A stretch of 7,798 bases of DNA from Candidatus Fermentibacterota bacterium (GTDB lineage Bacteria; JAFGKV01), in the NCBI GenBank assembly GCA_016928395.1, contig JAFGKV010000331.1, forward strand, positions 1 to 7,798, written 5' to 3'. Under the pieces are notes generated by a model. That model saw nothing but the letters and a program-made list of their open reading frames with translations. It was not told the origin of the DNA and made no database searches. Below are positions 167 to 7,775 of this stretch, piece after piece. Made by a program: the position numbers and the translations under genes. Numbering within the stretch: the stretch's first letter is position 1; each line of letters starts with the position of its first letter.

Positions 167-240
167 GCTCGCAGGCGACAGGGTTCAGGGTTCGGGGTTC
201 AGCCCGGCCTCCTTCACTTCTTCACCTCTTCACCTCTCTG
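167..240. repeat. Composite repeat, copy 1
   Basis: The order is GCTCGCAGGCGACA, then three GGGTTCA-type heptads (181-201), a CCGGCC spacer, and three TTCAC(T/C)TC octads (213-236). The same order recurs at 438-507 and 530-607, and a related version lies at 2782-2857. This is therefore a multi-part unit duplicated as a block, not independent slippage at each site. Confidence 0.75.
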
Positions 241-437
241 CGTGAGACCCTCGCTTCCTTCATGCTCTTCATGCTCTTCATGGTGAACATAGCCCCGCAG
301 GGCAAGGCAACCGTGACGAAGGAATGCAGAGCATACGCTCCATTCCTTCGTCACTTGTTCCCCTTTGAGTCCTTTGTGCCTTTGTGGTGAATTGCCTTCT
401 CTGTGACCTCTGTGTCCTCTGTGGTGAGCTTCGCTTC

Positions 438-507
438 GCTCGCAGGCGACAGGGTTCAGGGTTCGGGGTTCAGGCCGGCCCTCTTCACCTCTTCACCTCT
501 TCACTTC
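438..507. repeat. Composite repeat, copy 2
   Basis: It has the same module order as the copy at 167-240: GCTCGCAGGCGACA, heptads at 452-472, a CCGGCC spacer, and octads at 484-507. It is followed by a TTTGCCCCTTGGGC linker that leads directly into the copy at 530-607. That linker is also present in the distant copy at 2782-2857. Confidence 0.75.
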
Positions 508-529
508 TTTGCCCCTTGGGCCTCGCTTC

Positions 530-607
530 GCTCGCGGGCGACAGGGTTCAGGTTTCGGGGTTCAGGCCGGCCTCCTTCACTTCTTTACCCCTTTACTTCT
601 TCACCTC
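530..607. repeat. Composite repeat, copy 3
   Basis: The module order is the same: GCTCGCGGGCGACA, heptads at 544-564 with one substituted unit (GGTTTCG), then four octad variants at 576-607, two of which have TTTAC in place of TTCAC. The divergence shows that the copies are not an assembly duplication. Confidence 0.7.
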
Positions 608-751
608 CAGAGCCCTTTGCGCTCTTTGCGTCTTTGTCGTTGACCCTGAGCGCAGTGGCGGGGCGTGAGACTGCCGCCTCCTCTGTGACCTCTGTGCCCT
701 CTGTGGTGAGTTTCTGCCTCTTCCTCCGCTCGCGCTCCCCCAAACTTTTCC

Positions 752-780: not shown

Positions 781-942
781 GGCATGTGGAGTTCACACGG
801 GGCAGAAGCGCGCAGCACGCTCCTGGTTCGTGTTTCGCATAGCCTCACGCGTTCACCTTCCCGTCACCCCGGGGGGAACCCGATGCCCGAGGACCCGCGC
901 TTTCATCCGATCCCCCACGCCGGCTCGCCGGTTCCGATCGGC

Positions 943-1019
943 CACTATTCTCATGTTGGAATAGTGGCCCGTGCGCCCTCTTCAGCCAGAACAAGTTCCC
1001 ATTTTGCCAGCGACCCTAG
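943..1019 (+). repeat. Palindrome-led intergenic element, copy 1
   Basis: CACTATTC (943-950), eight bases (951-958) and GAATAGTG (959-966) form a hairpin. In this copy it extends to ten paired bases per arm (941-950 with 959-968). A conserved tail runs to CCCTAG at 1014-1019. Over the 53 tail bases it matches the copy at 3135-3187 at 44 positions with no gaps (counted by eye). It lies 60 bases upstream of the start codon at 1079. No T-run follows the hairpin. It could be an operator or leader of the regulator gene, a structured RNA, or a small non-autonomous mobile repeat. The sequence alone does not decide between these. Confidence 0.75.
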
Positions 1020-1065
1020 AACTGCCCAAAAGACAATCGGCGCGAAGGATGGATTCTTAGGATTT

Positions 1066-1072
1066 GGTGAGG
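1066..1072 (+). promoter_or_regulatory. Ribosome binding site deciding the start at 1079
   Basis: GGTGAGG lies six bases before the ATG at 1079. An in-frame TTG at 1064 and GTG at 1067 would also open the frame, but they fall on or before this purine-rich site and would lose it. The ATG is therefore the better start. Confidence 0.6.
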
Positions 1073-1078
1073 GTCTCA

Positions 1079-2527
1079 ATGGCCACAACCACTGATGACT
1101 TCTTGACTCAACCCGAGGGTCGGACGCGGGAGTACAAACGCGACCTGTCATCGCTTCGGCCGGTACTCAAGACGCTAGTTGCATTCGCCAATACGGCGGG
1201 TGGGACGCTCGTGGTTGGCCGGGAAGACCGCGGCACGGTGGTCGGCATTCGCGATCCCCAAGGCGATGCCGAACGGCTTTCAAATGCTGTGGCTGACGGG
1301 ATCGCTCCGGACCTTCTCCCCGACATCGAGACCGTGGCCGTGGGTGACAAGACGCTGTTGGTCGCACACGTTGCACGGTGGCCGGGGCCGTTCTACTTGA
1401 AGGCTGAAGGACCGGAGAAGGGCGTCTATGTTCGGCTCGGGTCCACGACTCGCCGGGCAGGCGCCGACGCCGTTGCCGAGATGCGGCGGGTTGATGCAAG
1501 CCTTGCGTTTGACCAGTTGCCGTGCCTCGGCTCCGACCTTACAGATCTCGATAACGGGAGCATCGGCAGCGCGTTCGAGAAGGTTGGAAGGGACATTGGC
1601 CTGAGCAGTCTCCAGAGCCTTGGAGTCGTAGTCCGCTACGGAAAAGCTCAAGTCCCCTCAAACGGCGGCATCATCCTGTTCGGCACCGCCGAGGCGCGCC
1701 GCCTATACTTCCCGGATGCGGTCATCAGGTGCGCGCGATTCCACGGTACTGAGAAGGTTCATTTCATTGACCGGCAAGACATTGAGGGGAGAGTACTGCC
1801 GGGGATCGAGGACGCACAGAAGTTCATCGCACGGAACACACGGCTGGCGTCTAGGATCGAAGGGCTGCGGCGCCAGGACCTTCCTGAGTATCCCCGTGTG
1901 GCGCTTCGCGAGGCGCTCGTGAATGCCGTGGCGCACGCAGATTGGAGCGCACGGGGGAGTCAGATCATGGTTGCCGTGTTCTCGAACCGCATCGAGATTC
2001 AAAACCCGGGACAGCTGCCCTTCGGCATGACCATTGACGACATCAAGGCCGGGGTGAGCAGCATCCGTAATCGCGTTATCGCCCGCGTCCTGCACGAACT
2101 CGACTACATGGAAACCTGGGGCACCGGCTACAAGCGGATGCGCGCGGACTGCGAGGCTGGCGGTTACCCGCTGCCGGACTGGGTGGAACTCGGGCGGGTG
2201 ACTCGGGTGGTGTTCCATCCGCATCCACAGGTTGCGGCGACAGGCGATGTCGGTAGAAATGTCGGTGAAAGTGTCGGTAGAACCGTGGTGCCAGGCATCC
2301 CGCTCAACGACCGCCAACGATGGTTCGTAGAACGGCTTGTGGATGGTGTCCACGTTCGCGCCGATGATATCGCGCGGCAGTTCGGCAGGACTGTGAGGAC
2401 GGCCGAGCGCGACATCGCGGCCTTGGAACGTGCCGGGGTTGTCGAGTTCGTGGGTGCGCGGAAGAACGGCTACTATCGGGTGAAGGAAGCCGCAGTTTCC
2501 TCCCCGCAAGTCCGGACGACTCCATGA
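1079..2527 (+). CDS. AlbA_2 (Schlafen-type) domain / HATPase regulator, COG2865-like
   Basis: The product is a 482-residue, probably cytoplasmic nucleic-acid-binding regulator. Residues about 7-130 match the AlbA_2 fold: an EYK motif near residue 18, LVAFANTAGGTLVVG at 33-47, and the characteristic YVRLGSTTRRA at 117-127. Residues about 265-380 match the HATPase_c_4 type of GHKL ATPase domain: an N-box-like REALVNAVAHADW (277-289), NPG (309-311) and WGTGYKRM (347-354). A tetrapeptide-repeat linker (about 390-403) leads to a C-terminal winged helix (about 408-468). Family knowledge supports ATP-responsive transcriptional regulation, but the target is unknown. AlbA_2-related domains also occur in RNA nucleases, so an RNA-directed role is possible. 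The gene looks complete. A palindromic element 60 bases upstream may be its control site. Confidence 0.88.
   Translation: MATTTDDFLTQPEGRTREYKRDLSSLRPVLKTLVAFANTAGGTLVVGREDRGTVVGIRDPQGDAERLSNAVADGIAPDLLPDIETVAVGDKTLLVAHVARWPGPFYLKAEGPEKGVYVRLGSTTRRAGADAVAEMRRVDASLAFDQLPCLGSDLTDLDNGSIGSAFEKVGRDIGLSSLQSLGVVVRYGKAQVPSNGGIILFGTAEARRLYFPDAVIRCARFHGTEKVHFIDRQDIEGRVLPGIEDAQKFIARNTRLASRIEGLRRQDLPEYPRVALREALVNAVAHADWSARGSQIMVAVFSNRIEIQNPGQLPFGMTIDDIKAGVSSIRNRVIARVLHELDYMETWGTGYKRMRADCEAGGYPLPDWVELGRVTRVVFHPHPQVAATGDVGRNVGESVGRTVVPGIPLNDRQRWFVERLVDGVHVRADDIARQFGRTVRTAERDIAALERAGVVEFVGARKNGYYRVKEAAVSSPQVRTTP
2246..2281 (+). repeat. In-frame 12-base repeats encoding a linker
   Basis: Three 12-base units (GATGTCGGTAGA, AATGTCGGTGAA, AGTGTCGGTAGA) encode a D/N/S-V-G-R/E tetrapeptide repeat between the ATPase domain and the winged helix. 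The decayed relative at 3200-3991 has a different 12-base array at the same domain boundary. Confidence 0.8.
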
Positions 2528-2618
2528 ATCGCCTACGCGAAGCCTCGGCAGTCTGCGCCAGATAGCAGTCTCGGCACGTCAACGAGATCAGGACTTCCCG
2601 CTCCTGCTCCCTTGCTCC

Positions 2619-2635
2619 AGCGGTTCTCAACCGCT
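2619..2635. terminator. Inverted repeat downstream of the regulator, weak terminator candidate
   Basis: AGCGGTT (2619-2625) and AACCGCT (2629-2635) form a perfect seven-base stem with a CTC loop, 92 bases after the stop codon at 2525-2527. It lacks a T-run, so intrinsic termination is doubtful. Confidence 0.25.
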
Positions 2636-2718
2636 CCCCTGGGGATCGCCCTTCCCGCTCCCCGGCGGAGCCGCTGCGGGACGCTCCGTGGCGAGAGAAT
2701 GAGGCTTCGCTGCGCTCG

Positions 2719-2753
2719 CAGTTCTCAGTCTTCAGTCTTCAGTTCTCAGTTCG
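2719..2753. repeat. Heptanucleotide array, CAGTTCT type
   Basis: There are five tandem units: CAGTTCT, CAGTCTT, CAGTCTT, CAGTTCT, CAGTTCG. The same unit occurs twice at 91-104. Confidence 0.85.
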
Positions 2754-2781
2754 GGCTGCCGGCTCGCTCACCTCTTTGCTT

Positions 2782-2857
2782 CTTCACCTCTTCACTTCTT
2801 TGCCCCTTGGGCTTCGCTGCGCTCCCAGGCCCCAGGGCTCAGGGTTCAGGGTTCAGC
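2782..2857. repeat. Composite repeat, distant copy
   Basis: Octads (2783-2798), a TTTGCCCCTTGGGC linker, CTTCGCTGCGCTC and three heptads (GGGCTCA, GGGTTCA, GGGTTCA at 2835-2855) reproduce the arrangement at 491-565. The copies are about 2.3 kb apart on either side of the intact regulator. Confidence 0.75.
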
Positions 2858-2870
2858 TCGCCGCCCCATC

Positions 2871-2898
2871 TCCTCACTCCTCACTCCTCACTCCTCAC
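2871..2898. repeat. Heptanucleotide array, TCCTCAC x4
   Basis: There are four perfect tandem copies of TCCTCAC. It is entirely intergenic and pyrimidine-rich on the + strand. Confidence 0.9.
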
Positions 2899-2955
2899 TC
2901 GACAGCCCCGTTCCGTTCTTGACTTCCCCCTCCTCCCGCCATACCGTTTGCTCTA

Positions 2956-3007
<52 letters not shown>

Positions 3008-3110
3008 ACTGACTGCCGACTGGATCAGCTCCGCATTCCCAGGGGGAAGCATGCCCTCACTCTCATCCCACATCCCATGCCCCTGCATGGCCCGCCGAGC
3101 CAGAATCACC

Positions 3111-3187
3111 CACTATTCCAACCTTAGAATAGTGGCTACTGCGCCGTCTTCAGCCAGGACAAGTTTCCATTCTACCAGCGTCCCTAG
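3111..3187 (+). repeat. Palindrome-led intergenic element, copy 2
   Basis: CACTATTC (3111-3118), eight bases, GAATAGTG (3127-3134), with one further pair outside (C3110 with G3135). The tail ends at CCCTAG (3182-3187). It matches the tail of the copy at 943-1019 at about 83% without gaps. Similarity stops at CCCTAG, and ten bases later the sequence is already inside the coding region of a truncated regulator. That sharp edge marks either the right boundary of a mobile repeat or the end point of a deletion running from the leader into the gene. Confidence 0.75.
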
Positions 3188-3199
3188 CCCCCTCCCCTC

Positions 3200-3991
3200 G
3201 TGGACCAGGCCGTGGACTTCGTGCTCTCGAAGCTGAACCTCTCCGTGGGCACGCGTGCCGAGAGCGCCCAGGCATCTGTCGCCTATGAGCTCCCGCCCGC
3301 GGCGGTACGGGAAGCCATCGTGAATGCAGTGGCGCATCGCGACTACACAAGCCGCGGCAGCGTGCAGGTCATGCTGTTCGCTGATCGGCTGGAGGTCTGG
3401 AATCCCGGCACGTTGCCGCCTGCGCTGACACTGGCGCAACTCCGCGAGCCCCATGGCTCCATTCCGGCCAACCCGCTGCTGGCGGAGCCTCTCTATCTCG
3501 CCAAGTACATCGAGCGCATGGGTACCGGCACGGGCGACATGATCCGTCTGTGTCGCAAGGCTGGCTTGCCCGAGCCGGAATTCGCAATCCGCGACGGCTT
3601 CCTGATCACCCTCCGTCGTCCGGCGCGCGTTGTCCGTCTCGCCGCAGGGGAAGTCACGGGGGAAGTCGAGGCCCAAGGGGCTTAAGCCACCGGACAAGTC
3701 GCCGGACAAGTGACCGGACAAGTCGCCGGACAAGTCGACATTGATCCATGGGTCTTCAGGGTGCTGACGGCCTGTGCGGAAGGTCCACTCAAGAGCATCG
3801 AGATCCAAGCCGCGGCAGGCCTCAGGCATCGAGAGACATTCCAACGGAACTACCTCGACTACCTGCTCCGGGAAGAACTGGTCGAACGAACTGTACCCGA
3901 TAAGCCGCGCAGCCGCCTGCAGAGGTATCGGCTGACCCCCAAGGGACGTGCGCTACTGGAACACCTGAGCAGGGGGGAATCCCAACGGTGA
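3200..3991 (+). pseudogene. Truncated and interrupted COG2865-type regulator
   Basis: The reading starts at GTG 3200 and gives 161 residues: the HATPase_c_4 region, with N-box-like REAIVNAVAHRDY (37-49), WNPGTLPP (67-74) and ERMGTGTGDM (105-114). A TAA at 3683-3685 stops it. The same frame then continues through a (T/A)GQV tetrapeptide linker and a winged helix (DPWVFRVL to the stop at 3989-3991). The N-terminal AlbA_2 portion is absent: the frame has a TAG at 3185-3187, and upstream lies only an intergenic element. The gene is thus 5'-deleted and carries one in-frame nonsense codon. Coding-like sequence persists after the stop, so the damage looks recent, or the two halves may be made separately. 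GTG 3710 could restart translation but has no visible ribosome site. It is related in domain plan to the intact gene at 1079-2527 but is not a close duplicate. Confidence 0.85.
3689..3736 (+). repeat. Four 12-base tandem repeats encoding (T/A)GQV
   Basis: The four units are (A/G)CCGGACAAGT(C/G). They begin three bases after the in-frame stop and encode the linker between the ATPase domain and the winged helix. Degenerate GEVTGEV codons precede the stop, so the nonsense codon lies inside the linker. Confidence 0.9.
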
Positions 3992-4271
3992 TCCGGCGCT
4001 TTCATACTGCCGCCCTCCATGTTCCTTCTGGTCACACCAAGACGTTCGATGTCGAGTGTTCGATGTTGCACGCTCTCGCGCCTGGCTCCTCACGCCCGAC
4101 GCCCGACCAACTCCTGCCCCCTGTAACCTGCCCCCTATTCCCCGTCACCTATACCCTATGCCCTCACTCGATGCTCGTGGAGTCATTGCATCTCAGGAGT
4201 CTGAGGGCTTTTCGGAGTGGCTCAATGCTCCGCACATGGCGCCACTGGCTGCAGACGGAGCTGTCGTGGCG
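3992..4271. other. Repeat-bearing spacer before the HEAT gene
   Basis: Short arrays show this is intergenic: heptads GTTCGAT, GTCGAGT, GTTCGAT, GTTGCAC at 4044-4071, two ACGCCCG units at 4092-4105, and pyrimidine-rich stutter (CCTGTAACCTGCCCCCTATT) at 4128-4147. The HEAT frame is open back to 4056, but that extension translates these repeats and is proline-rich, unlike the rest of the protein. A short frame ending in TGA at 4273-4275 overlaps the ATG at 4272 (ATGA). It resembles nothing recognisable. Confidence 0.65.
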
Positions 4272-7100
4272 ATGACCGCCCGTTCTCGCGCGGCATTGGG
4301 AATCGTGTTTGTCGTGGCCCTTGCCTCGTATGCCGTACTCGATCATCTCGTCCCCCCCGGCAAGGTTCTCCAAGAACGCATCATGGGAATCGGATACGAT
4401 CTCGTGTACCGTCATCCGATCCTCACCGCCAAGATCGCGCTCCGCGTGGGGAATGAACGCACCAAAGGTGATGTCATCGAGGGGCTTCTGAGCGCCGATG
4501 ACATCGCGGGGGTTCCCCTTCTTCTGGGCTGCCTCGATGAGAAGAGCGCCCGCATGCGTCTCGGCGCCATCGGCATTCTCGGTCATCTTGAAGACCCCCG
4601 CGCCGTACGGCCACTGATCCGCCTCGTGCGGGACGACAAAGACTTGCGGATGTGGGCGGCCCAGGCACTCGCCCGAATCGGCGAGCCCGCCGTTGATGGG
4701 CTGTCGACACTCCTGGATCATGCCGACCCGCTGGTTCGCCTTCAGGCGATTGAGGCTCTAGGCAGAATCCAGGCACCCGGTGTCGATGAGGCGCTCTTCA
4801 GAGCCATGGGTGACGAGCTTCCCTTCAACAGAGCTGTTGCGGCTGCACCCCTTGCACTATCGGGACACGCGGAAGTCGCAGACACCCTTATCCGTTGGAA
4901 CGACATCGCCTGGCGTGCCACCGAATCGGCTATTCTCGCCTTGGACAGCCTGGCCGTCCCGGCGCTCATCCGGGCTGCCCACTCGGACGACTGGACGGTT
5001 CGGGAGGATGCCATCGGCTACCTCGGAGCGATCGCGGACCCGCGTTCCGTAGAGGTCCTGCTGGAGCGATTGGAGGATCAGTACTGGTCCACAAAGCTGG
5101 CTGCTGCGAGGGCACTGGCGAGAATTGGAGATTTGACCACGGCACCGGCGCTTCTACATGCCTACCTACACGAATCGACGCTGCTTGCCGAGCCGTTTCG
5201 TAAGGAGCTGGTCTCCCTCTGGGGCAAGCCCAGAACAACCGAACTCCTCCCCTACCTCGAATCGTCGAACGATACGCTGCGCCAGCGAGCCGCTGAGTTG
5301 CTGGCCCTCTCGACGGATCCGCCTGCCCTGAGAGCACTTGTTCCCCTGCTACGAGACCCCCTCTGCCCACTACGAGCGCAGGCCGTGAAAGCCATCGAAT
5401 CGCTGGGGGGAACGGAGACGGCGGACCTGCTGGCTGCCCTGAGGGATTCCTGCGAGGCGGTTCGAGTTGCGGCGGCCGGTGCCGTAGGCAGGCTCCGAAT
5501 GCGACCGGCCGTCCCGCTTCTGCTGAAGCTGCTGGAGAGCGACGCGGTGAAGGCGCGAGTTGCTGCCATCGATGCGCTGGGGCATTTGGGGGGACCGGCA
5601 GCAGATTCCGCGCTTGTGGCGGCGCTGCGCGATCAGGACTCCGGGACCCTTACGCACGTTCTGGAGGCACTTATGGCTGCGAAGACTCCAGTGCCACCCG
5701 AGGCGTTGTCACCGTTCCTCGGCAGTGCAGACAGAAGCATTCGATCCAAGGCAACATTGGTCCTCAACAATTCAAAAGGGAATGGCGCCCTGTCCGCCCT
5801 GGAGCGCATGTTGCAGGACCGAAGACCCGCGGTGGCGCAAGCCGCTGCCAGGGCGCTCGGAATCAGAGGTGGTGATGATGCGGTCGACCTCCTGGCACGT
5901 GCGCATTCGGTCAGGAATGATCTGGGAGGAGCCTGTCTTGAGGCCCTGAGAGCGATTGGAACGCCAGCGGCACTGAAGAGCCTTGCGGATGTGATGGCCA
6001 GCGCTGGCGGCCCTTCCGGCGGTGGAAATCGCGATGAACGCGCTGAGGGGACTTGGCGTTCGCCACGGTCGGCTTCCTCTCAGGTCCTGGGCGATGGCCT
6101 GGACCACAGCAGCCCAAGTGCACGGATGCGGGCGAGTCAACTCATGCTCGAATCGGGCGACTTCCGCGCGGTTCCGGTGCTAGTGGGTCTGATGGGATGT
6201 GCGCAAGAGCATGTGATGGAGGAGGCGATCAACGCGCTGTCTGAAGTGTACGACCACGCGGTTGCCCAGTTGGAGTCCGCCGCCACCTCCAGGGACGTGT
6301 ACGTACGATTGGGTGCGTGTGGGATTCTCCTCGCGAACAAGCGCTCGCGGTATGCGGACCCCATACTCAGGGAACTCCGCAACCCTGAGCCATCGATCCG
6401 CCGATGGGCTGCCCACATCCTGCGCATGATGGACGCATCCGACTATTCGGGCAGATTGAGGCTTCTGCTCCACGATGAGAACCCAGATGTGCGCAAGGAG
6501 GCATTCGGCGCGCTCTGCCAGCTCGGTGATAGTGCATCGACCCAGAGGCTCGCCGAGGTTATCGTGTCGGAGGTCGAGAGCCACGTGGGAGCACCGGTGT
6601 GGATCATCAGCACGCCCTTGTCGTATGTGACCTACCTTGTCCAAACCCACGGTGCGCCCGCTATCGATGCGCTGTCCACGCTGCTGAGTGACGCAGATCC
6701 GTGGCTGCAGTACGCCGTGTGGGAGGAGATCGCAGACGCCGGCGACACGACAACTGCGCCTTACTTCGTGGCCCTTACGAGGGAGAACCTGCCAATGCTC
6801 GCGCAGATCGCGCGATCCGCGCTGATCAAGTTGGGTGAGCCTGCACTGCGAGAGGTGCGTGCCAATGTCGGCGACAAGTGCGCCGAGACACGGCGGACCG
6901 CAGCGTACGTCCTGGGCAAGAACGGCACCGCCGGAGATCTTCCCATGGTCGAGCGACTGCTCAGCGACAGAAACCGCCTCGTTAGAGCCGAGGCTGTCCG
7001 CGCCCACGCTCGTCTCAAAAACAGAATCAACCACGAGCTCTATCCTCGCCAGAAGCGCACGTACGACTACTGGTATTCCGGGGAGATGGAGGTCGACTAG
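4272..7100 (+). CDS. Membrane-anchored HEAT-repeat protein
   Basis: With the ATG at 4272 the product is 942 residues. Residues about 7-24 form one hydrophobic segment (ALGIVFVVALASYAVL), which suggests an N-terminal signal anchor or signal peptide with the rest outside or periplasmic. From about residue 70 to the C-terminus it is almost entirely HEAT/PBS-lyase-like repeats of roughly 30-37 residues, for example RLGAIGILGHLEDPRAVRPL and AAQALARIGEPAVDGLSTLL. Such alpha-solenoids act as protein-binding scaffolds. No catalytic domain is visible and the partner is unknown. GGAG at 4257-4260 lies 11 bases before this ATG, a loose fit. An earlier in-frame start at 4056 would add 72 residues translated from intergenic repeats and is disfavoured. 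Residues about 576-603 break the repeat pattern because of apparent compensating frameshifts. Confidence 0.85.
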   Translation: MTARSRAALGIVFVVALASYAVLDHLVPPGKVLQERIMGIGYDLVYRHPILTAKIALRVGNERTKGDVIEGLLSADDIAGVPLLLGCLDEKSARMRLGAIGILGHLEDPRAVRPLIRLVRDDKDLRMWAAQALARIGEPAVDGLSTLLDHADPLVRLQAIEALGRIQAPGVDEALFRAMGDELPFNRAVAAAPLALSGHAEVADTLIRWNDIAWRATESAILALDSLAVPALIRAAHSDDWTVREDAIGYLGAIADPRSVEVLLERLEDQYWSTKLAAARALARIGDLTTAPALLHAYLHESTLLAEPFRKELVSLWGKPRTTELLPYLESSNDTLRQRAAELLALSTDPPALRALVPLLRDPLCPLRAQAVKAIESLGGTETADLLAALRDSCEAVRVAAAGAVGRLRMRPAVPLLLKLLESDAVKARVAAIDALGHLGGPAADSALVAALRDQDSGTLTHVLEALMAAKTPVPPEALSPFLGSADRSIRSKATLVLNNSKGNGALSALERMLQDRRPAVAQAAARALGIRGGDDAVDLLARAHSVRNDLGGACLEALRAIGTPAALKSLADVMASAGGPSGGGNRDERAEGTWRSPRSASSQVLGDGLDHSSPSARMRASQLMLESGDFRAVPVLVGLMGCAQEHVMEEAINALSEVYDHAVAQLESAATSRDVYVRLGACGILLANKRSRYADPILRELRNPEPSIRRWAAHILRMMDASDYSGRLRLLLHDENPDVRKEAFGALCQLGDSASTQRLAEVIVSEVESHVGAPVWIISTPLSYVTYLVQTHGAPAIDALSTLLSDADPWLQYAVWEEIADAGDTTTAPYFVALTRENLPMLAQIARSALIKLGEPALREVRANVGDKCAETRRTAAYVLGKNGTAGDLPMVERLLSDRNRLVRAEAVRAHARLKNRINHELYPRQKRTYDYWYSGEMEVD
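5997..6083 (+). other. Compensated frameshift segment within the HEAT gene
   Basis: In the annotated frame this stretch reads as Gly/Ser/Arg-rich sequence (AGGPSGGGNRDERAEG) with no HEAT character. From 6001 to about 6057 the frame one base later reads ALAALPAVEIAMNALRGLG, a good HEAT helix with mostly G/C third positions. From about 6059 to 6082 the next frame reads FATVGFLS. The original frame then resumes with QVLGDGLDHS. Joined in order these give a plausible continuous repeat. Three single-base gains, or equivalent indels, explain it. It could be real drift or a sequencing or assembly error. Confidence 0.7.
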
Positions 7101-7216
7101 GGTGATCATTGACGCCTGGCCTCAGCCCCACGTCAGCAAGAACCCTGCTCCCTCCCCGCACCTCACTCCTCGATTTCCCCTTTCGGATTCTCCGCGCGTG
7201 GGGGCTAGTTGCTTCC

Positions 7217-7248
7217 CCCTCGCCCCGCGGGAGAGGGTGGGGTGAGGG
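7217..7248. repeat. CCCTC...GAGGG hairpin repeat
   Basis: CCCTCGCCCC (7217-7226) pairs with GGGGTGAGGG (7239-7248) with one G-T wobble. It is of the same class as 16-51, and similar sequences are common between genes in many phyla. Confidence 0.55.
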
Positions 7249-7261
7249 CACGTCGGACACC

Positions 7262-7282
7262 TCCCCCTTTCGCAAAGGGGGA
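7262..7282. repeat. Perfect hairpin TCCCCCTTT / AAAGGGGGA
   Basis: The nine-base arms are perfect with a CGC loop, and GGGGGATTT follows at 7286-7294. This resembles a widespread dispersed intergenic repeat. It has no T-run and lies over 150 bases past the HEAT gene stop, so a terminator role is unlikely. Confidence 0.6.
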
Positions 7283-7371
7283 TCGTGGGGGATTTCGTAC
7301 TTCGGTCTTCCCGCGCAGCGCGTCCGGTGGGAACGACTTGAGTCGTGATCGAGCGAAGTGGATAGATGGGG

Positions 7372-7399
7372 TTCCGCCTTCCGCACTCCGCACTCCGCG
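7372..7399. repeat. Heptanucleotide array, (T/C)TCCGC(A/C/G) x4
   Basis: There are four tandem seven-base units: TTCCGCC, TTCCGCA, CTCCGCA, CTCCGCG. The period is the same as in the arrays at 2719-2753, 2871-2898 and 2956-3004, with an unrelated unit. Confidence 0.85.
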
Positions 7400-7600
7400 T
7401 TCGAGAGGCTTTCCGCGCCAGAGGGCAATGCTTGACGTCACGGGCGGGGCGGGGCTTCTTCCGACCCATTCAGCTCCGAGGGACACCTTCACCCAGGGGC
7501 CGTGATGGATACGATCGGATCGCACGCCCTCCACTCCCGCTCGCCGCGCCGATCCCCGGCATTCGCCCAGGGGCCCGGCCACGCCGGAACCGGCACTGCC

Positions 7601-7677
7601 CACTATTCTCGCATTAGAATAGTGCTTCGTGCGTGCGATTCTTGCTCGGCCGCGGGCCTCTCTACCAACGAGTTCGG
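7601..7677 (+). repeat. Palindrome-led intergenic element, copy 3 (diverged)
   Basis: CACTATTC (7601-7608), eight bases, GAATAGTG (7617-7624). The tail is diverged, but TGCG (tail positions 6-9), TTC (15-17) and CTACCAACG (38-46) fall at exactly the same distances from the palindrome as in the copy at 3111-3187. The palindrome arms are unchanged while the tail has drifted, so the hairpin appears to be the constrained part. The right boundary is placed by analogy. Confidence 0.6.
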
Positions 7678-7775
7678 CTTTCTGTCGTGCGCGAATCCCA
7701 ATAAGCAATACCTGACCCTCAATCTCACGGGCCTGTTATCAGCACGCCTGCCTGTGGTATGTCTCCGGTAAGGAG

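What the first reader, a model, noticed from the sequence alone, without database searches (positions are those of the whole stretch)
943..7677. Three-copy palindrome-led element of about 77 bases
Copies at 943-1019, 3111-3187 and 7601-7677 share CACTATTC, exactly eight bases, and GAATAGTG. They also share tail motifs at identical spacing; CTACCARCG starts 38 bases after the palindrome in copies 2 and 3. Copies 1 and 2 are about 83% identical across the tail. The arms are invariant in all three while the loops and the copy 3 tail vary, which points to selection on the hairpin. Two copies lie just 5' of COG2865-type regulators and the third just before a possible gene. I do not recognise it as a known family. 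It could be an operator or leader for these regulators, a structured RNA, or a small transposable repeat.
Basis: partly seen in the sequence, partly recalled or inferred. Interest (0 to 1): 0.75.

Follow-up and report, generated by a model that had tools for sequence, protein, structure and literature searches.

The report
Genus-wide intergenic palindrome with rewritten arms
The three copies are part of a family of about 75-90 short palindromes lying between genes throughout this uncultured bacterium's genome and that of its one sequenced sister species; the middle of each palindrome is frozen, while the outer arms differ from site to site yet still pair perfectly, which points to a DNA site that is repeatedly rewritten by fold-back copying.

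Summary
The core CTATTCT-N6-AGAATAG occurs 74 times exactly (93 with up to 2 mismatches; control 1) in the window's genome and about 67 times in a sister species, Ca. Eisenbacteria Prado127. It is absent from the other genus of the family and, but for one isolated match, from 57 more distant genomes. Sites are intergenic (3 of 80 inside called genes, against 76% of random positions) and next to unrelated genes; only two adjoin COG2865-type genes, so a dedicated operator is not supported.

New findings: (1) outside the frozen core, site-specific arms of up to 12 bp are perfectly complementary. This holds across 68 unrelated flank clusters, and in orthologous sites both arms have changed together. 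(2) The tail motif YTACCARCG sits exactly 37 nt from the palindrome in ten flanks, including all three window copies. (3) Flanking repeats are mosaics, often joined at the palindrome.

The closest known kind is Neisseria dRS3/NIME (ATTCCC-N8-GGGAAT, same geometry), not REP/RAYT, an Rfam RNA or an intrinsic terminator. Most likely it is a double-stranded DNA site for an unidentified dimeric protein, with arms rewritten by fold-back template switching. The binding protein and the function are inferred, not shown.

The parts
943..966 (.). Palindrome copy 1, CACTATTC-TCATGTTG-GAATAGTG; core 945-964; 5-bp complementary arms outside the core
   Evidence: member of the genome-wide family
1004..1012 (+). 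Tail motif TTGCCAGCG (one mismatch to YTACCARCG), 37 nt after palindrome 1
942..1019 (+). Composite element copy 1 (palindrome plus T-type tail ...AAGTTCCCATTTTGCCAGCGACCCTAG)
   Evidence: 82% to copy 2
3111..3134 (.). Palindrome copy 2, CACTATTC-CAACCTTA-GAATAGTG; core 3113-3132
3172..3180 (+). Tail motif CTACCAGCG, 37 nt after palindrome 2
3040..3187 (+). T-type repeat carrying palindrome 2 (81% to contig C170)
7601..7624 (.). Palindrome copy 3, CACTATTC-TCGCATTA-GAATAGTG; core 7603-7622
7662..7670 (+). Tail motif CTACCAACG, 37 nt after palindrome 3
7410..7726 (+). U-type dispersed repeat carrying palindrome 3; relatives in own contigs C135, C340, C301, C255 and in the sister species (L238, L215)
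1079..2527 (+). Neighbour: COG2865-type ORF (SLFN_AlbA_2 + HATPase_c_4 + HTH_11), start 114 nt after core 1; not a constant partner of the palindrome
3200..3991 (+). Neighbour: 5'-truncated COG2865-type remnant (HATPase_c_4 at 3200-3685, Fic-like_C/winged helix at 3710-3991, same frame, interrupted by a stop), 67 nt after core 2

Best explanation
The element is a member of a genus-restricted family of dispersed intergenic palindromes, organised like the Neisseria dRS3/NIME system. Its invariant core (RCTATTCTMANNTKAGAATAGY, two half-sites in dyad) is most likely recognised as double-stranded DNA by a dimeric protein not yet identified (inferred). Because the core can fold back, or because a bound protein stalls replication there, the nascent strand switches template at the palindrome. 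Fold-back copying makes the flanks into perfect, site-specific inverted arms, and jumps between copies join unrelated flanking repeats at the palindrome (inferred from the footprints). In gene-poor stretches such as this window the palindrome and its tail (37 nt, then YTACCARCG) are modules of intergenic mosaic repeats. Shown: copy number, genus restriction, intergenic placement, core constraint, half-site symmetry, arm complementarity and its concerted turnover, conserved positions, fixed tail spacing and mosaic junctions. Inferred: the binding protein, replication-linked copying and any benefit to the cell.
For: Copy number and restriction: 74 and about 67 sites in two species of one genus, 0 in the other genus of the family, 1 match among 57 distant genomes. 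Intergenic: 3/80 inside called genes versus 76% of random positions. Core: of 80 sites found with at most 1 mismatch allowed, 78 are perfect at the 12 core positions; 74 of 93 found with 2 mismatches allowed are perfect at 14 positions. Symmetry: in 70 sites oriented by flanking genes, both halves have the same base frequencies and G.U versus A.C mismatches are balanced, 45:34; the inner positions 8/13 vary close to independently. Arms: complementarity above shuffle at arm positions 1-4 in 68 unrelated clusters (z 4.7-5.6) and in register only, 149 pairs versus 77-94 when slid; also in each genome alone. Other inverted repeats of the same geometry do not extend: at least 5 bp in 24% of family sites versus about 1% of controls. 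Arms end abruptly, with pairing at background just past the first mismatch, as expected from a copying event rather than stepwise compensation. Concerted replacement in orthologous sites...CCGGGCA/TGCCCGG... versus ...CAGGGGGA/TCCCCCTG... (C160/L243), also C271/L216, C164/L241, C3/L204. One paralogue (C335) has an 8-nt clustered change that makes an 11-bp perfect arm, while four sister copies keep the imperfect form. Mosaic: about 10 of 28 homologous site pairs share only one flank, ending at the palindrome. Template switching as a maker of perfect stems: PMC8794818; quasipalindrome mutations in E. coli: PMC7202029 (abstract).
Against: No binding protein was identified. About half the sites have little or no outer arm, so arms are not required. 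Arms are longer at sites near stop codons than elsewhere (p = 0.0017), which selection for 3' hairpins would also explain. Arms do not extend at other short inverted repeats, so a plain mutational process must be tied to this core specifically. Only one paralogue shows a candidate single template-switch event. Shuffles do not model relatedness fully.
Confidence: 0.5

Rival explanations
1. A functional hairpin in RNA, or a DNA cruciform. Selection keeps the whole stem paired, and the invariant top is bound by a protein; near gene ends it acts as an mRNA 3' end, a terminator or a stabiliser.
For: Covarying arms in two genomes; concerted change in orthologous sites; longer arms next to stop codons; divergent gene pairs under-represented, 9/59 and 4/47 against about 21% expected; long-armed sites fold far better than shuffles (z -8.6 and -10.4).
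Against: Half of the sites have arms of 2 bp or less; no G.U bias in the transcribed orientation and equal half-site statistics; TTTT within 25 nt in only 2 of 160 flanks; arms stop abruptly without internal mismatches; no Rfam match; in the tail of four U-type copies no pair shows a two-sided change.
Confidence: 0.25
2. A small mobile palindrome (REP- or MITE-like) spread by a transposase acting in trans.
For: Dispersed copies with a sharp consensus and few intermediates; presence/absence differences between the two species; mosaic flanks; REP families are likewise intergenic and favour tandem and convergent gene pairs (PMC3733652).
Against: Y1 (RAYT-type) transposase genes of both species lack the palindrome in the fetched flanks, up to about 1.5 kb on either side; no constant unpaired tag next to the stem; about ten orthologous positions kept at roughly 60-80% protein identity; outer arms differ at every site, so no constant element end is visible.
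Confidence: 0.2
3. An ordinary operator of a transcription factor that controls the downstream genes.
For: Dyad symmetry with independent half-sites; start-codon distances conserved in orthologous pairs (14/16, 24/23, 27/42, 42/56, 176/180, 250/248, 335/323).
Against: 15 and 13 sites lie between convergent genes; no preference for gene starts over stops in tandem pairs, 18 of 35 closer to the stop; neighbours functionally unrelated; complementary outer arms are unexplained.
Confidence: 0.2
4. Leader or operator specific to COG2865-type regulators, as first proposed.
For: Two of the three window copies lie 67 and 114 nt upstream of COG2865-type ORFs.
Against: Nearly all of the other sites adjoin unrelated genes, and the ORF next to copy 2 is a 5'-truncated remnant.
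Confidence: 0.02

Closest known systems
dRS3 repeats and neisserial intergenic mosaic elements (NIMEs), Neisseria
   Same: 20-bp palindrome with conserved 6-bp ends and an 8-nt variable middle (ATTCCC-N8-GGGAAT versus CTATTC-N8-GAATAG), intergenic, many copies, embedded in mosaics with 30-160-bp repeats (PMC3898611)
   Different: Unrelated sequence; about 75-90 copies rather than about 700; site-specific complementary outer arms and a motif at fixed 37-nt spacing, which are not described for dRS3 in the passages read; no phage or integrase link found or tested here
REP/BIME repeats and REPINs with RAYT transposases
   Same: Short intergenic palindromes, lineage-specific, mosaic surroundings, tandem/convergent bias
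   Different: No GTAG or CGTC tag, RAYT genes not flanked, perfect dyad rather than asymmetric hairpin with tail, arms differ at each site
Quasipalindrome correction / template-switch mutations
   Same: Makes perfect inverted arms in one event with abrupt ends (PMC8794818, PMC7202029)
   Different: Known as scattered mutation events; here tied to one conserved core at dozens of loci in two species
Dispersed chromosome-organising palindromes (Noc, MatP and ParB sites; from memory, untested)
   Same: Tens of copies of a strict palindrome spread over a chromosome
   Different: Those sites are not known for site-specific complementary arms; the binding protein here is unknown

Membership tests
dRS3/NIME | 20-bp repeat, 6-bp inverted ends, 8-nt variable middle | tested here: met
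   CTATTC-N8-GAATAG at 78 of 80 sites; dRS3 definition from PMC3898611
dRS3/NIME | Sequence ATTCCC-N8-GGGAAT | tested here: not met
   Core sequence is CTATTC/GAATAG
dRS3/NIME | Mosaic with other short repeats in intergenic regions | tested here: met
   T- and U-type repeats joined at the palindrome
dRS3/NIME | Target of filamentous-phage integration | not tested
   Phage genes and integrases were not searched; one 175-bp MITE sits in a palindrome
REP/RAYT | GTAG or CGTC tag at one end of the stem | tested here: not met
   No constant flank outside the core; arm positions vary between sites
REP/RAYT | RAYT gene flanked by the repeat | tested here: not met
   Five Y1_Tnp matches in the own genome and three in the sister, none with the palindrome in the fetched flanks
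Intrinsic terminator | Stem followed by a U-tract | tested here: not met
   TTTT within 25 nt in 2 of 160 flanks
Known structured RNA (Rfam 15) | Match to a covariance model | tested here: not met
   No match at E up to 1 in the window
Transcription-factor operator | Placement upstream of regulated gene starts | tested here: inconclusive
   No start bias in tandem pairs, but conserved start distances in some orthologous pairs
Transcription-factor operator | Bound by a cognate protein | not testable with these tools
   Needs pull-down or DAP-seq

The most novel reading that the evidence does not exclude
A dedicated protein acts at this palindrome (nicking, hairpin opening or fork arrest) and regenerates perfect inverted arms at each site. 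That would be a core-plus-self-copied-flank element in which palindrome form is inherited although its sequence is not, with a bipartite recognition site (palindrome, 37 nt, YTACCARCG).
Probability: 0.2. Interest if true: 0.8.

Novelty: new variant of a known kind. Interest (0 to 1): 0.55.

Why it matters
It is a natural case in which dozens of palindromes share a frozen core while their flanks keep perfect pairing despite complete sequence turnover. This lets two explanations for paired stems, selection on a hairpin and template-switch copying, be told apart in living genomes. It also shows that NIME-like intergenic mosaics occur far outside Neisseria, in an uncultured phylum, and it warns that covariation alone does not prove a functional RNA.

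Tried and rejected
COG2865-specific operator: rejected, other neighbours are unrelated. REP with RAYT: no flanking. Rfam RNA: none. Intrinsic terminator: no U-tracts. SOS-type operator, considered because one conserved site precedes a UvdE-type endonuclease: other neighbours do not fit. Recombination at the palindrome centre from two half-sites: one (C232) proved to be a full site split by a 175-bp MITE with 14-bp inverted ends and target duplication CTGAG; the other (C10) is a deletion from the centre to about +170, so this was not pursued. General palindrome mutability: rejected as the sole cause because other inverted repeats do not extend. Tail as promoter: motif orientation and distance to genes are inconsistent. 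Literature search for the core letters returned only incidental hits. Matches of the 24-mer pattern in other phyla were not examined further and look like single chance hits.

Full report
Observation. The three palindromes are at 943-966, 3111-3134 and 7601-7624 as described. In each, a motif of the form YTACCARCG (copy 1 with one mismatch) begins after exactly 37 further nucleotides. The window is contig C69 of a 4.79-Mb, 94%-complete draft genome.

A genome-wide family. The pattern CACTATTC-N8-GAATAGTG has 26 places in this genome and the reversed-pattern control has none. The wider core CTATTCT-N6-AGAATAG has 74 exact places, and 93 with up to two mismatches against one for the control. The only other genome of the genus held has 63 places with that core and 67 with the slightly looser one. 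Shared contig lengths and site positions identify it as Candidatus Eisenbacteria isolate Prado127. The other genus of the family has none, and 57 further genomes have one match between them.

Placement. I called genes with a simple hexamer model. Three of 80 sites fall in called genes against 76% of random positions; the rest are tandem 35, convergent 15, divergent 9, with others at contig edges. Prado127 gives 30, 13 and 4. Part of the intergenic bias is expected, because the core carries stop codons in two of three frames. Neighbouring genes belong to many families. COG2865-type ORFs stand next to only the two window copies, and the second is a 5'-truncated remnant.

Core. Positions CTATTC and GAATAG are invariant in 78 of 80 sites; the next position is T/A with rare C/G; then M and A, with K and T on the other half. 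In 70 sites oriented by flanking genes both halves have the same composition, and G.U and A.C mismatches are balanced. That is what a double-stranded DNA site read by a symmetric dimer would show, and no strand preference is seen.

Arms. Outside the core, bases on the two sides pair far above shuffles in both genomes. With one site per cluster of flank homology (68 clusters over both genomes), arm positions 1-4 still give z 4.7-5.6. Sliding the register drops pairs in arm positions 4-8 from 149 to 77-94 of 340. Arms reach 12 bp, end abruptly, and pairing just past the first mismatch is at background. Other inverted repeats with 6-bp arms and an 8-nt spacer in the same DNA do not extend: at least 5 bp in 24% of family sites, about 1% of controls. 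About half of the sites have arms of 2 bp or less.

Orthologous sites. About ten sites lie next to the same gene in both species; in three cases both flanking genes are orthologous. Distances to the downstream start are often kept (14/16, 24/23, 176/180, 250/248, 335/323). In four pairs both species have arms of at least 5 bp with wholly different sequence, for example ATCCGGGCA/TGCCCGGAT against CGCCAGGGGGA/TCCCCCTGGCG. Pairing is therefore kept or re-made while sequence turns over. The site-bearing contigs were chosen for having sites, so I also located seven neighbour genes in Prado127 without that bias: one has a site in the same intergenic region, one has a decayed remnant (CTATTCTGCTTCGTGAATTC) between two orthologous genes, five have none. 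Positions are thus partly conserved and partly turning over.

How arms change. Five paralogous copies share about 300 nt at 82-88% identity. Four have the imperfect left flank CACTGGCCGCCA (or near it); C335 instead has CACCTTGGCCA, the exact reverse complement of its right flank, so one cluster of changes made an 11-bp perfect arm. This is the footprint described for template switching (PMC8794818) and for quasipalindrome mutations in E. coli (PMC7202029). Selection on a hairpin could act on top: arms are longer within 80 nt of a stop codon (p = 0.0017 against the remaining sites).

Mosaic surroundings. Copy 2 lies in a 148-nt repeat, copy 3 in a 245-330-nt repeat present in both species. About ten of 28 homologous site pairs share one flank only, ending at the palindrome. 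The tail motif at 37 nt is found in ten own flanks and in two Prado127 flanks (plus one at 36 nt); other distances have zero to two. Several of the sequences between palindrome and motif are unrelated. A related 27-nt motif (AACTTGACATTTTACCWACGTCCCTAG) also occurs in at least eleven places without the palindrome.

Comparison. Geometry, placement and mosaic context match Neisseria dRS3 and NIMEs (PMC3898611), though the sequence differs and a phage link was not tested. REP/RAYT membership fails on the tag and on the flanked transposase. Rfam and terminator readings fail.

Limits. Both genomes are fragmented drafts, gene calls are approximate, ortholog sampling is incomplete (17 of the 67 Prado127 sites were not listed by coordinate), shuffles do not model all relatedness, and the p value for arm length is one of several comparisons made. 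The binding protein, the replication link and any cellular benefit are inferences.

Noticed in passing
L138:1058-1232 (G000 C232:45757-45931): A 175-bp MITE-like insert with 14-bp inverted ends (CCCACGTTGAGCGA) and a CTGAG target duplication sits in the middle of a palindrome of this family; single copy in the DNA held.
   Followed up: partly
L175, L176, L177, L178, L179, L183, L184 and others: A 27-nt motif AACTTGACATTTTACCWACGTCCCTAG recurs without the palindrome, often near contig ends, as the constant 3' part of otherwise different repeats.
   Followed up: partly
window 3200-3991: A 5'-truncated COG2865-type gene remnant starts a few bases after the tail of copy 2 and is interrupted in frame by a stop.
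   Followed up: no
L179:257-270 (G000 C10): A paralogous copy lacks the right half of the palindrome through a deletion running from the palindrome centre to about +170.
   Followed up: partly
window 3684-3731: Four 12-nt tandem units (AAGTCGCCGGAC-like) lie across the break between the two remnant ORFs.
   Followed up: no
window 180-620 and 2700-3015: Low-complexity intergenic repeats (TTCACCTC, GATTGCC, TTCAGTTC units) fill the spaces around the palindromes.
   Followed up: no
L164:2915-2960 and L219:3594-3637: A UvdE-type UV endonuclease gene has the palindrome 23-24 nt before its start in both species; the gene was not found in the sister genus.
   Followed up: partly
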